Shown in pieces: positions 21,941 to 37,224 of a DNA stretch of 64,000 nt. This stretch comes from Limonium bicolor (Eukaryota > Streptophyta > Magnoliopsida > Caryophyllales > Plumbaginaceae): assembly GCA_023374045.1 (NCBI GenBank), contig CM041780.1, positions 173,233,339 to 173,297,338 of the forward strand. The letters run 5' to 3'. The notes beneath the pieces are model-generated. The model did no database searches and was not told the DNA's origin. It worked only from the letters and a program-made list of their open reading frames with translations. Both the position numbers and the translations under genes were made by a program. Each line of letters starts with the position of its first letter. Within the stretch, counting starts at the first letter, position 1.

Positions 21941-22931
21941 CTACAATGAAGCAATAAAATTCTTAGAATTTCCATTCTTATTGAAAGCTTCATGAGCAAC
22001 TTAAAATTTACAATGCTGAAACTGTAAAGTACAAGGCTAGGTCTGTCTAAAGGTTAGGTTTAGACGGCCCAGTTTCATATGGGTCTGGTTAATAATGGGT
22101 GTGGGCGCTGTGTTGGGCTTGATTCTCTTCACCCCATGGTAGATGAGTCTAGCTGCCCCACCAAAGATCAGTACATCACCCGACTTCAGGAGGATCTTGG
22201 TAGCAAGGTCCATCCTTCTTTGATCACCAAATAGGAACTCCACGTCGTCTCCAAGTGATACAGACACAACTGGAACTCCTCTAGTGACGGACTCTGGCGA
22301 TTCGTCCTTGTCTTGGTGCATCCCTAACTTACCCTCCTTTCCATAGAAGTTGAAGATGCACACGTCAGAGGTTAGGTCTGGCACGGGCTCATCCTCCAAT
22401 TCTTGTGCTGCCTTAACTGCAGCTCTAATGATGGTCTGCAGTATCTCCGGGATTGGTGGCACCTCCACCTCTTCATAGCTCTTGGTGGTGTGGTTCCACT
22501 TCTTACCTAGGCACATGATCTTCACCTTCATGGTTGAACCATTCTTGAAGGTAGGGGTGTAAAAATTTCCTTCCTTCACACCTAACTCCCTGATCTTGAG
22601 GATCAATGCATACTGGACTGCCGGGGTCAGGTACTCTCGTAGTAAGATCATCCCGGGTCTCAAGACCTCACACTTCTCTGGTGGGTGTGGTTTGGCTTCA
22701 AAAGGGATGTTGGGTGTGGAATATGGCAAAATAGGAAAGCAAATATCGAAAGCTGAACAACAATTGCCATTAAATAAATAAGTCAAGGTTCACAACTGGA
22801 AATGACAGGTTCGAAACGAAACAAAATGAAGGGTTTATAGTTCATCCCTTTTACATTGATAAAGAAAACTAGGCAACTGAATGTAAAGAAAGTAAGGGTC
22901 TAAGCCTCTTCATGAGGAAAATAGTCCTCAC
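21941..22931 (-). other. Element C: predicted 991 bp intron containing the AlkB frame
   Basis: The donor on the minus strand is CCTG|GTGAGG at 22932/22931, a good plant 5' splice site within gag. The acceptor is TTCATTGTAG|GGGTTGGG at 21941/21940. Splicing joins a gag codon split after its first base to the linker exon in frame, bypassing the gag stop near 22900 and the whole AlkB frame. Element B has the same arrangement at 36202-37224. Predicted only; no transcript data. Confidence 0.65.
22037..22786 (-). CDS. Element C: AlkB-family Fe(II)/2-oxoglutarate dioxygenase
   Basis: An intact 249-codon frame encoding an AlkB-type oxidative demethylase. Known family members remove alkyl groups from DNA or RNA bases using Fe(II), oxygen and 2-oxoglutarate. 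Visible features: metal ligands in the HQDKDE segment (H157, D159) and H217 in LIYHG; the signature RLNLTFR at 241-247 fits the RxNxTxR 2-oxoglutarate-binding motif; the core strands FNFY (145-148), VSVSLGD (174-180) and SGDVLIFGG (202-210) are all in place. Residues 1-45 precede the first conserved block (RPGMILL). It lies in a third frame between gag and protease, inside a predicted intron, and has no introns of its own, as expected if captured through RNA. The start at 22786 is the first in-frame ATG; a second is M46. It resembles the cellular bacterial AlkB/ALKBH1 type. The substrate is unknown; protection or demethylation of the element's own RNA is my inference. Confidence 0.93.
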   Translation of the reverse strand: MTYLFNGNCCSAFDICFPILPYSTPNIPFEAKPHPPEKCEVLRPGMILLREYLTPAVQYALILKIRELGVKEGNFYTPTFKNGSTMKVKIMCLGKKWNHTTKSYEEVEVPPIPEILQTIIRAAVKAAQELEDEPVPDLTSDVCIFNFYGKEGKLGMHQDKDESPESVTRGVPVVSVSLGDDVEFLFGDQRRMDLATKILLKSGDVLIFGGAARLIYHGVKRIKPNTAPTPIINQTHMKLGRLNLTFRQT

Positions 22932-24181
22932 CAGGTGAACTCGGGTCATCACTTGCTGCCTCGACGCGGTCCACCATGTTAAGGACCGGTGCCTTGCCCG
23001 GCCTCTGGGGGTGGCTCTGGGCAGGGCGGCTGGTAGATGGTCCAGCACCTTCTGTGCCACCTCGACCTCCTCCAGTAGTAGTAGCAACTGGGGCTCTAGC
23101 AGGGTTCCTGGTGCGTGGCTTGCAGTTCCTGGAATCCGGGTTCAGGAAGCATTCGAACGATCTGTGCCCCTTCTTACCACAGTGGTTGCAGTCCACCAGG
23201 TTTCCCTTACAATCTTTGCCCGGGTGGTCCTTCTTGCACCACTTGCAGAAGAACTTCCTCGCAAGTTGGTTCCCCTTAAATGGCAGGGAGCGTAGTGGCT
23301 CAGCATTAGTATATGAGGGGACCATGGCCTTCTCGTTCCTCCCCCTGTAGAACTTTCCCTTCCTCTCGTAGTTTTGGGAAAAGTTTCCTCCATTTCCTCT
23401 TTCTCCATCCCCCTTCCTCTTGCCTAGCACAGAGTCCTGGTAGGCAATGGTGGTCTCACAGTCATTCGCATCATCCGCTAACTCCTGTGGTGACAATATA
23501 TGTTAGTGGAGAAACCTTTGCGTACCCGAAATTTTAAATCATATTCCATACCTGTAGGGTCATCCCTCTGGTGGAACCGATCATAGTCATGATCTTGAAG
23601 TTCAAGCCGGTATGGAATTTGTCCACCAGATATCTTGGGGTGTAAGCTCCCTCTCCTATAACAGTAAGTAACTCCACAAACTTATTGTAGTACTCAGCAA
23701 CAGAGAGACTCCCTTGCTTCAGGTGCTCGAACTCACTCCTCATCCTCTTCTGTAGATAGGATGGATAGAATTTAGCTCTCAGGGCCACTAGAAATGCCTG
23801 GAAGTCAAAGTTCGCCTGGGCCGTCAGCTCGGCTCTAGCAGTCTGCTACCATCGATGCACGGGTCCCTGAAGAAAGTAGGCTGCTATGTCCACCTGGCGA
23901 TTCACTGGAACATGCAGAGAGGTGAAGGCCTTCTGCACCTCGTCTATGTATTTCTCTAAAGTCTTCGGTTCTGGTTGGCCTTCATAAATTGGAGGACGAA
24001 GGTCGTTAACTGCCTTCAGCCAGTTGAACTCCCGGGGACCATTAGGTGGTGGCGGTGGTGGTTGCGGGATCTGAGCCTGCTGCTGAGCTAATGCAGCTGT
24101 CACAATCTGCGCTATGACCTCCGGGGTGACAACGTCGGGTCCATAGCCTCCTTAGGGACCAGCTCCTCCTCTTCGAGACAT
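22932..24181 (-). pseudogene. Element C: gag, two predicted exons with stops
   Basis: This encodes the capsid/nucleocapsid polyprotein of the chromovirus. The first exon (24181-23552) starts MSRRGG and has the retrotransposon gag core (FNWLKAVNDL, then FEHLKQGSLSVAEYYNKF). Exon two (23484-22932) carries two zinc knuckles: CKWCKKDHPGKDC, a CX2CX3HX4C variant, and CNHCGKKGHRSFEC, CX2CX4HX4C, near 23260-23150. In-frame stops occur near 24153 and 23847, so the copy is not translatable as it stands. A frame end at 22900 (FPHEEA) would terminate gag on unspliced RNA; use of the donor at 22931 would instead extend gag into protease. The start ATG is 278 bases after the LTR. Confidence 0.85.
23485..23551 (-). 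other. Element C: predicted 67 bp intron in gag
   Basis: Donor CTACAG|GTATGG and acceptor CACCACAG|GAGTTAGC, with a branch-point-like CTAACAT about 15 bases upstream of the acceptor. Removal joins ...MTLQ to ELADDAND... in frame. Element B has a 114 bp intron at the same protein position (TSLQ / ECYHAAS), which makes this call strong for a prediction. Confidence 0.8.
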
Positions 24182-35800: not shown

Positions 35801-36201
35801 ACTCTTGAGCAGCAGTCGATGCTCGGCGCAGAGGATTCTACCCTTGTGCCGCTCCAACCAATTCATTCCAATGATTAGGTCGAATCCCAATCCATTGAAT
35901 TCGATGAAGGAAATGGGAAACGCCTCCTTTTTAATTTCGATGGTGGCTGATTGGTAGTATTTGGTACATTTTACTCGCTCCTTCGATGGGAGAGTAACCA
36001 TGAAGTTCGGTATCTCATCCGCATCTAGCTTCAACCTCTTCACAAAGGATGGTGATACGAAGGTGTGAGAGGCGCCGGAGTCGAATAACACATTGGCATC
36101 AATGCCATTTACTGGGAAGGTTCCCGTTAGAATGGTGCCGCTTCTGCCGGCTTGTGCTTCGGTGAGGATGCTCAGGTTACCTTCGGTACCGAGCCCACAA
36201 C
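32830..36201 (-). pseudogene. Element B: pol (protease, RT, RNase H, integrase, chromodomain) with one-base frame breaks
   Basis: A complete Tekay-type pol. Protease DSGASHTF is near 36085. RT runs from about 35500 with FVKKKDG, YRELN, PFGLSNAP and an intact FIDD active site (near 35075). RNase H has EVYCDASG, YSDHKSLQ and VVADALSRR. The integrase has its CQKVKFE zinc-binding end near 33950, VSDRDTRF, and QTDGQTERT with the catalytic glutamate kept; a chromodomain follows, ending YPQLF near 32840. The protease-RT frame is open from 36289 to 34706; breaks near 34740, 34180, 33930, 33820 and 32990 each look like gain or loss of one base, mostly at short homopolymers. Given the same error type between the two LTRs, the native element may be intact. 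On a spliced RNA, pol would be fused to gag at the acceptor 36202/36201. Confidence 0.92.
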
Positions 36202-37224
36202 CTATTGATGTCACAATTGGATAAGTATTGATGGTGGACACAAGTGGAATTAAATCAACACTGCTCTTTATTGATAAACCAACCATCATACATGTCGTGT
36301 CTCTAATACACGTTACTAATAGATTACATGATACTAGGAATTTAATATTTTCTAAAGGTAAGGTTCAGGCGTCCTGGTTTCATGTGTGTGGCATTGATTA
36401 TTGCCGGCGGTGCCGTATTCAACTTGATCTTGTTGATCCCGTGATACAGCATCCGTGAGTTTCCACCCATGATGAGGACATCTCCTGATCTCAATACCAA
36501 TTTCTCTGCGAGGTCCACACGCTTCTGCTCGCTATACAGGAATACGGCGTCATCACCAATGGACCAAGACACTACGGGCACTCCTTGTTCAAGAGATTCC
36601 GCTGTCTCGTCCTTGTCTTGGTGTAACCCAAGTCGTCCTTCTTTTTCATAGAAGTTGACGATACAAAGGTCCGCTTCAAGTGCGGGGATTGGTTCAGGTT
36701 CACATTGCTGTGCAAGTTCTACTGCTTGAGTGATGAGGGTCTGAAACTCTGGTGGTATTGTCGGTGGCGTCGCTCCGTCTTGTGTTCGTGTCTCCTGGTA
36801 TGTCTTGGTATAAGGATTCCAGTCCTTTCCCAAGCACATCATTTTCAGCTTCATCTTCGCTCCACCGGGGAATTCGGGTGTGTAAAATCCACCTTGACCC
36901 GTTCCTAGCTCGTTGCATCGTCGAATAATTGAGATTTGCGCTTCGGGTGTCAGGTATCCCCTTAATAAGATCATACCTGGGCGGATGACCTGACACTGTT
37001 GTTGGTGTAGTCGTGTTGGTGATGTCGATCTCTTCTTGATTCAAGGTTACCGGTATTGGGTAACAGATACTAAAGTTCCTATGGTTCAAATTCATCTACG
37101 GTGAGTACTAGTTTCAACTACTCCATTTCATGCTCAATTACACTTCATTGATTTACTCATGCATTCACTACAATTGCTTACTACTAGGCATGCTATTTCA
37201 AGGATTAAAGGTTTAGGTGATTAC
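36202..37224 (-). other. Element B: predicted 1,023 bp intron containing the AlkB frame
   Basis: The donor is CCAAG|GTAATC at 37225/37224, at the end of gag. The acceptor is CATCAATAG|GTTGTGGG at 36202/36201. Splicing keeps frame through the split glycine codon and continues directly into the open protease-RT frame. Without splicing, gag ends a few codons on (37205). Position, phase and content match the predicted intron of element C (21941-22931). Predicted from sequence only. Confidence 0.65.
36342..37095 (-). CDS. Element B: AlkB-family Fe(II)/2-oxoglutarate dioxygenase (one probable frameshift)
   Basis: Same product and position as the AlkB of element C. The open part from M at 36974 is 210 codons: metal ligands H118 and D120 in HQDKDE and H178 in MLYHG, and RLNLTFR at 202-208 with both motif arginines. 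The upstream part reads in the next frame from an ATG at 37095 (MNLNHRNFSICYPIPV...), resembling the C protein's DICFPILPYS region. The two frames meet near 37010, where one base appears to be missing. With that break ignored, the length is about 250 codons, as in C. By eye, more than half the residues of the shared core are identical to C, and substitutions spare the catalytic motifs. The frameshift may be an assembly error. Alternatively translation may start at 36974 (the M of PGMILL). Confidence 0.9.

What the first reader, a model, noticed from the sequence alone, without database searches (positions are those of the whole stretch)
22037..37095. Two related chromoviruses carry an AlkB-type dioxygenase between gag and protease
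Elements C (22037-22786) and B (36342-37095) each have a separate frame of about 250 codons with the complete AlkB signature: HQDKDE metal ligands, a downstream HG histidine, and RLNLTFR matching RxNxTxR. Seen directly: both lie at the same place in the element, in a frame of their own, and the proteins are clearly homologous but diverged, with catalytic residues kept. Known: AlkB domains occur in cells and in some plant RNA viruses, where they are thought to reverse RNA base methylation. I do not know of a described LTR-retrotransposon family with one. Inference: the domain was acquired before B and C diverged and is kept because it helps the element, perhaps by demethylating its RNA or protecting it from m1A/m3C or m6A marks.
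Basis: partly seen in the sequence, partly recalled or inferred. Interest (0 to 1): 0.96.

Follow-up and report, generated by a model that had tools for sequence, protein, structure and literature searches.

The report
Retrotransposons carrying an AlkB demethylase exon
A high-copy jumping-gene family in what is likely a plant genome carries its own complete AlkB-type demethylase gene, kept by selection and predicted to be spliced onto the particle protein, where it would strip methyl marks from the element's own RNA or DNA; orchids hold one unlike but comparable case, so this would be a second, different route to a similar end.

Summary
Both elements carry an AlkB dioxygenase (PF13532, E 6.5e-42 and 4e-45) between gag and protease; so does a third, A, at the window's edge. 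Genome searches scored 150 C-type, 150 B-type and 109 further AlkB copies (capped counts); gag and protease/RT flank AlkB in 59 of 60 C- and B-type loci checked. TE AlkBs form one clade (96/95) apart from plant ALKBH1D, and the RT tree repeats (C,(A,B)): one acquisition is likely. In 40 copies chosen by non-coding DNA, variants shared by three or more copies are poor in amino-acid changes (0.13 per site, silent = 1) against singletons (0.55; p 4e-5), as in protease/RT: purifying selection. "A frame of its own" needs correction: AlkB looks like an alternative exon. One phase-1 donor at the end of gag joins in frame to an AlkB and to a pol acceptor in A and C (B: pol, and AlkB phase in 27 of 29 copies), so Gag, Gag-AlkB and Gag-Pol could come from one RNA (inferred; no RNA data). 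Orchid Tat/Ogre elements with an active ALKBH5-type demethylase are known (PMC9289625); lineage, nearest AlkB, position and introns differ here. New variant of a known kind.

The parts
8971..42914 (-). Element C, nested: 5' LTR 42914-42760 + 28604-24460, internal 24459-18083, 3' LTR 18082-16771 + 11916-8971 (interrupted by another insertion 11917-16770); LTR K2P 0.0256
   Evidence: self-BLAST, LTR ends and TTAA at both flanks, divergence over 4179 sites
28605..42759 (-). Element B, inserted in C's 5' LTR; LTRs 38932-42759 and 28605-32443, K2P 0.0047; target-site duplication GATGT
1..1701 (+). 3' half (integrase, chromodomain-like end) of element A; its gag, AlkB and PR/RT lie just upstream (L061)
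23485..23551 (-). C: gag intron 1 (GT..AG), same place in A and B
   Evidence: inferred from homology, no RNA
22900..23484 (-). C: gag 3' part with zinc knuckles; phase-1 splice donor 22932|22931; stop 22902-22900 if unspliced
22037..22752 (-). C: AlkB exon (FDICFP...RLNLTFRQT stop), acceptor 22753|22752 in phase with gag donor
18497..21940 (-). C: PR-RT-RH-INT and chromodomain-like end; pol acceptor 21941|21940; extra intron 21865-21792; decayed (in-frame TAG codons; RT motif reads FIDN)
37926..38039 (-). B: gag intron 1
   Evidence: inferred
37569..37651 (-). B: gag intron 2 (also at this place in A, absent in C)
   Evidence: inferred
37225..37568 (-). B: gag zinc-knuckle exon; phase-1 donor 37225|37224
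36342..37078 (-). B: AlkB exon; acceptor 37079|37078 (out of phase in this copy); catalytic frame 37040-36342 intact, N-terminal piece frame-shifted in this copy
32833..36201 (-). B: PR-RT (36201-34706), RNase H (34761-34174), INT (33842-32976), chromodomain-like end (32967-32833), with frame breaks between them; pol acceptor 36202|36201

Best explanation
These are chromovirus-type LTR retrotransposons that carry a complete, selectively maintained AlkB dioxygenase closest to plant ALKBH1 (OsALKBH1/ALKBH1D type) between gag and protease, predicted to be made as a Gag-AlkB fusion by alternative splicing and likely to act inside the element's particle, where it would remove methyl groups from adenines in the element's own single-stranded RNA and cDNA. 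Shown here: position, domain, one clade of carriers, many copies, purifying selection. Inferred from sequence: gag ends at a phase-1 5' splice site just before its stop; unspliced RNA gives Gag, splicing to the AlkB acceptor gives Gag-AlkB, splicing to the pol acceptor gives Gag-Pol. Both junctions read in frame in A and C; in the B type the pol junction does so in the window copy, and the AlkB acceptor has the right phase in 27 of 29 matched copies (not in the window copy). Untested: RNA isoforms, packaging, enzyme activity and substrate.
Against: No transcript or protein data: every splice site is inferred. The window's own B copy has a broken AlkB N-terminus and a shifted AlkB acceptor phase, and 16 of 29 matched B-type copies do not have acceptor and N-terminal frame both in order (the query carried the shifted N-terminus, which favours such copies). 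Variants found in exactly two copies show no clear constraint beyond singletons (N21/S12, 0.516 against 0.551), one AlkB stop codon is shared by three or more copies, and AlkB looks somewhat less constrained than PR-RT (0.133 against 0.081, p 0.17). Only 11 of 38 C-type AlkB copies in that sample are free of stops and frame shifts, so most copies are dead or contain assembly indels. The ATG inside RPGM could start a free AlkB of about 210 residues. The chromodomain scores 20.4-21.9 bits, under Pfam's cut-off of 25.1. C's PR-RT is by raw identity nearest to a partial Tanacetum protein (P0249, 76% over 301 columns; 70% to B), though the trees do not join them. The C type lacks the B gag intron 2. 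Packaging and substrate rest on analogy.
Confidence: 0.5

Rival explanations
1. AlkB is translated on its own from the internal ATG and works as a free enzyme in trans, as proposed for the orchid elements: it would demethylate m6A in element or host RNA in the cytoplasm.
For: An ATG stands at the start of the catalytic domain in B and C; P0001 and P0003 are recorded as starting there. Orchid precedent with in vitro m6A activity (PMC9289625).
Against: The open part reaches upstream of that ATG to the FDIC-type motif and to an in-phase acceptor in A, C and 13 of 29 matched B-type copies. The nearest solved relative is ALKBH1, not the ALKBH5 type of the orchid elements, though ALKBH5 was not compared directly.
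Confidence: 0.2
2. AlkB repairs alkylation damage (m1A, m3C) in the packaged RNA so that reverse transcription is not blocked, as suggested for AlkB of plant RNA viruses.
Against: Nearest solved relative is rice ALKBH1; rice ALKBH1 is reported for 6mA (PMC10469495, passages).
Confidence: 0.2
3. The enzyme acts on host chromatin (6mA at R-loops or histones) and counters silencing of the element.
For: Rice ALKBH1 loss raises 6mA in R-loop regions, and the enzyme inhibits H3K27me3 (PMC10469495, passages).
Against: A Gag fusion would place most of the protein in particles; no nuclear signal was looked for.
Confidence: 0.15
4. A passenger gene fragment, captured once and carried without function.
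For: Most single copies are decayed (27 of 38 in the sample chosen by non-coding DNA); variants in two copies show little constraint.
Against: Variants shared by three or more copies show purifying selection like that on PR/RT; deep A-B comparison pN 0.136 against pS 0.745; catalytic residues kept in A, B, C and in six copies of a fourth subfamily.
Confidence: 0.03

Closest known systems
Orchid Tat/Ogre Ty3/gypsy elements with AlkB (Gypsy_Pa_2799, Phalaenopsis; PMC9289625)
   Same: Ty3/gypsy LTR retrotransposon with an intact AlkB domain, many copies, Fe/2OG residues kept
   Different: Those: RT sister to Ogre, dual RNase H, 25.5 kb, gag-pol in one frame, AlkB in a second ORF of 565 aa of ALKBH5 (9B/10B) type, m6A activity shown in vitro. 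Here: chromovirus-type, about 14-15 kb, AlkB between gag and protease, nearest to ALKBH1, several inferred introns, activity unknown
Ogre elements of pea/Medicago (PMC6317226, passages)
   Same: Polyprotein expression controlled by partial splicing of an intron
   Different: [quoted passage not shown] no enzyme exon in it is mentioned in the passages seen; here the inferred gag-pol intron contains AlkB as an alternative exon and gag has further introns
Plant ALKBH1D/OsALKBH1 (5xoi, 5xeg)
   Same: Sequence (about 38-56% identity of listed named proteins), fold, N-terminal FDIC motif
   Different: Host gene products; TE forms are one separate clade
AlkB of Alpha-/Betaflexiviridae and Closteroviridae (as described in PMC9289625)
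   Same: A replicating RNA element that carries AlkB
   Different: RNA viruses; not compared by sequence here

Membership tests
AlkB-type 2OG-Fe(II) dioxygenase | PF13532 above gathering score | tested here: met
   144.4 and 154.9 bits, cut-off 31.2
AlkB-type 2OG-Fe(II) dioxygenase | HxD...H and RxNxTxR | tested here: met
   H140, D142, H200 of B invariant in 10 of 10 rows; R224/N226/T228/R230 at 90% or more, P0003 ends before them
AlkB-type 2OG-Fe(II) dioxygenase | demethylase activity | not testable with these tools
   no assay
Plant ALKBH1D/OsALKBH1 subfamily | closest solved relative and fold | tested here: met
   [not shown]
Plant ALKBH1D/OsALKBH1 subfamily | falls inside the host clade in a tree | tested here: inconclusive
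   13 TE rows lie outside a clade of 40 host rows, Volvox and one unnamed eukaryote (95/80), but AU does not reject TE plus angiosperms (p 0.13, 0.151), TE plus eudicots (0.115) or TE plus monocots (0.0995)
Chromovirus (Ty3/gypsy) | PR-RT-RH-INT order | tested here: met
Chromovirus (Ty3/gypsy) | chromodomain after integrase | tested here: inconclusive
   PF00385 at the right place in A, B and C, E 1.7e-4 to 5e-4 but 20.4-21.9 bits under cut-off 25.1
Chromovirus (Ty3/gypsy) | RT clade (Tekay/Del etc.) | not tested
   RT trees hold plant Ty3/gypsy-like proteins but no named clade references
Orchid AlkB Tat/Ogre elements | gag-pol in one frame with AlkB in a second, independent ORF | tested here: not met
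   AlkB between gag and protease
Orchid AlkB Tat/Ogre elements | ALKBH5-type AlkB | tested here: inconclusive
   nearest by sequence and fold is OsALKBH1; no direct comparison with ALKBH5 or with the orchid protein
Orchid AlkB Tat/Ogre elements | Tat/Ogre reverse transcriptase, dual RNase H | not tested
   no Ogre reference was placed in the tree

The most novel reading that the evidence does not exclude
A lineage of plant chromoviruses turned a captured ALKBH1-type enzyme into an alternative exon of its gag gene, so that one transcript yields Gag, Gag-AlkB and Gag-Pol by splice choice; the particle thereby carries a resident demethylase that erases adenine methylation from the element's RNA and nascent cDNA. 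With the orchid case this would make 'epitranscriptomic immunity' against retrotransposons, and its counter-defence, a convergent phenomenon, here with a DNA-capable enzyme.
Probability: 0.35. Interest if true: 0.92.

Novelty: new variant of a known kind. Interest (0 to 1): 0.76.

Why it matters
A second, unlike case of an AlkB gene in Ty3/gypsy elements (other element type, other nearest AlkB, other position) argues that adenine methylation is a real pressure on plant retrotransposons rather than a one-off in orchids. The gag-AlkB-pol layout makes a direct prediction (three RNA isoforms from one donor) that ordinary long-read RNA data can test. It also gives a natural enzyme with which to ask whether plants mark retrotransposon RNA or cDNA with methylated adenine.

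Tried and rejected
Selection from AlkB-chosen copies: median dN/dS 0.17 (C) and 0.065 (B) among 30 copies each was set aside because those loci were chosen by AlkB protein identity, which lowers dN; the 40-copy sample chosen by non-coding DNA replaced it.

One search used a mis-framed protease/RT query; its counts were discarded and repeated.

Other genomes: P0001-P0004 (61-71% identical to B; unnamed sources) group with the TE AlkBs, but their contigs could not be opened; of the four only P0001 is in the 120 rows listed for the C query. None of those 120 rows lists PF13532. Viral contigs: 2 pattern hits, none confirmed. Plasmids: 50 records, all under 60% identity, 5 rows seen.

Recent capture from an angiosperm ALKBH1D: not favoured by the trees, not rejected by AU. 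A search with a host-type protein (P0109, Stephania) gave 109 scored matches, all single stretches over the catalytic domain at 53-60% identity; the six fetched fall in the TE clade, so the host's own ALKBH1D gene was not picked out. Exact copy number and AlkB-free relatives in the same genome were not obtained; the pattern search did not complete. ALKBH5 does not appear among the 50 fold matches shown, which is no exclusion.

Literature: 9 searches of the open PubMed Central library. In what I saw, AlkB in an LTR retrotransposon is described only by the orchid paper and by papers that cite it; most listed papers were not opened. PMC9289625: text parts 1-5 of 7 read (parts 6-7 not opened). Passages only: PMC6317226, PMC12786077, PMC10469495, PMC7264820, PMC11963269. 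All others: search listings. The clade names Tekay/Del as a guess for these elements are recalled; no date in years is claimed.
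Full report
What is there. The window holds three related Ty3/gypsy elements. C spans 8971-42914 on the minus strand but is split by nested insertions; B (28605-42759) sits inside C's 5' LTR with target-site duplication GATGT; A occupies the first 1.7 kb and continues upstream. 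LTR divergence is 0.0047 for B and 0.0256 for C, so B is younger than C, as the nesting demands. Order in B and C: gag with zinc knuckles, AlkB, protease, RT, RNase H, integrase, a chromodomain-like end; the parts seen of A fit. The chromodomain is under Pfam's cut-off in all three.

Copies. The assembly holding the window is 2.92 Gb with eight chromosome-size contigs. Two AlkB queries each gave 150 scored matches, of 50,056 (C) and 51,535 (B) loose candidates, at 92-100% and 94-100% identity; a host-type query gave 109 of 46,235. These are lower bounds, and the three lists may overlap. By my count of the listings 33 of 150 C-type and 9 of 150 B-type rows have internal stops; these rows are the best matches and so flatter the family. 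Of the 30 loci fetched per query, gag lies upstream and PR/RT downstream of AlkB in 29 of 30 (C; L009 shows no PR/RT in the flank) and 30 of 30 (B).

Selection. To avoid choosing by AlkB, 40 C-type copies were taken by a 110-bp non-coding stretch upstream of AlkB (983 candidates, 40 scored); 32 were fetched and 8 were already held (one of them the window copy). 38 of 40 keep at least 90% of the AlkB frame (L071 and L076 dropped); 11 of 38 lack stops and frame shifts. Variants seen in three or more copies: 18 amino-acid-changing, 40 silent (0.133 per site); in two copies 21 and 12 (0.516); singletons 71 and 38 (0.551); three-or-more against singletons Fisher p 3.9e-5. In PR-RT of the same copies (36 of 40 kept) the values are 18/69 (0.081), 18/15 (0.372) and 64/43 (0.462), p 4.2e-8. 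Codon variants with more than one change (9 and 17) and stop variants were set aside; one stop variant in each gene is shared by three or more copies. So AlkB was constrained while the family multiplied, broadly like the polymerase genes; the two shared classes do not differ significantly (p 0.17). Recurrent C-to-T change at methylated sites could mimic some shared variants. Between subfamilies silent sites are near saturation (A-B AlkB pN 0.136, pS 0.745), so no exact dN/dS is quoted.

One acquisition. A, B and C are one clade (SH-aLRT 100) in an RT tree with 38 chosen hits of the 120 listed and in a second tree with 114 of 122 rows matched to B by BLAST pieces, plus B (the 8 others covered under 60% of the columns). 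Branching is (C,(A,B)), the same as for AlkB. Against this, C's raw identity is highest to a partial Tanacetum protein (P0249, 76% over 301 columns), which the trees place elsewhere. I did not resolve why; its cover of the query is partial (61%). None of the 120 pol rows listed carries PF13532 in its precomputed domains.

How it is expressed (inferred). The last codons of gag are interrupted by a GT donor in phase 1 in A, B and C. Read on, gag stops within 10 codons. Joined to the acceptor before the FDIC-type motif, gag runs in frame into AlkB (C..DDPSSP-A-FDICFP..; A..SSRP-G-RFNICYP..). Joined to the acceptor before protease, gag runs in frame into pol (C ..SSP-G-VGNSG..; A ..SRP-G-YGLGTEG..; B ..SGQ-G-CGLGTEG..). 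In the B type the AlkB acceptor has the right phase in 27 of 29 matched copies (not in the window copy), but acceptor and N-terminal frame are both in order in only 13 of 29; the top rows share the window copy's shift, which the query contained. In the 30 C-type loci the gag donor GT is kept in 29, the AlkB acceptor AG in 28 and the pol acceptor AG in 30; this is weak evidence because the copies are young, and the acceptor of C's protease intron is lost in at least 4. Stronger is that gag intron 1 sits at the same place in A, B and C, that intron 2 is shared by A and B, and that an extra protease intron in C falls exactly where B reads straight through. A recent review calls plant LTR elements generally intron-free, with Ogre and EVADE as exceptions (PMC12786077, passages). 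No RNA evidence was available here.

What it probably does. A Gag-AlkB fusion would enter the particle with the element's RNA. Rice ALKBH1 is reported to act on 6mA in single-stranded or unpaired DNA (PMC10469495, passages; that this is the protein of 5xoi is taken from the shared name); the orchid enzyme acts on m6A in RNA in vitro (PMC9289625). I commit to demethylation of adenines in the element's own single-stranded RNA and cDNA inside the particle, at about even odds for the whole chain; the splice model alone I put near 0.7 and the presence of a maintained enzyme near 0.95.

Against known cases. PMC9289625 (text parts 1-5 of 7 read) screened 121 plant genomes and found the domain only in Phalaenopsis, in elements whose RT is sister to Ogre, with an ALKBH5-type ORF2 separate from an intact gag-pol frame. 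The present elements differ in position and layout, and by nearest relatives in lineage and AlkB type, so I read them as an independent parallel, not as members of that family.

Limits. Host unnamed and called a plant by inference (AlkB and pol relatives). The host's own ALKBH1D gene and total copy number were not obtained. Many frame shifts may be assembly errors: the B LTR pair shows 37 gap columns against 18 substitutions.

Noticed in passing
window 1-1701 and L061 2320-3056: A third element, A, at the window's left edge also carries AlkB (74-77% identical to B) just outside the window; its AlkB is broken by a frame shift.
   Followed up: yes
L094-L099: A fourth AlkB subfamily in the same genome (252-263-residue open frames, nearest to unnamed protein P0002); it is closer to host ALKBH1D in raw identity (53-60% to a Stephania protein in the listing) than B is (49%). 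Its flanks were not looked at.
   Followed up: partly
window 45806-49846: Pieces 67-71% identical to the B LTR, in the same orientation: perhaps a diverged solo LTR of another subfamily.
   Followed up: no
window 30215-30553 and 40544-40881: Tandem repeats of about 71 bp with internal inverted repeats inside the B LTRs, also found in the piece at 47494-47913.
   Followed up: no
window 11917-16770: A separate insertion splits the 3' LTR of C; it begins TGTAACACCCC on the minus strand.
   Followed up: no
window 60099-63605: Gag and protease-RT-like frames of a different Ty3/gypsy-like element on the minus strand; domains were not searched.
   Followed up: no
window 51183-51795 and 57040-57652: Two copies of a 613-bp stretch at 98% identity, perhaps ends of another nested element.
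   Followed up: no
window 28605-32443 against 38932-42759; 36212: The LTR pair of B has 37 gap columns but only 18 substitutions, and next to the pol acceptor the window copy has one base that 28 of 30 B-type loci lack (one further locus reads differently, one shows the window's letters); residual assembly indels may explain many frame shifts.
   Followed up: partly
window 20000-21800: C's RT has several in-frame TAG codons and FIDN in place of B's FIDD, while its AlkB is intact.
   Followed up: partly
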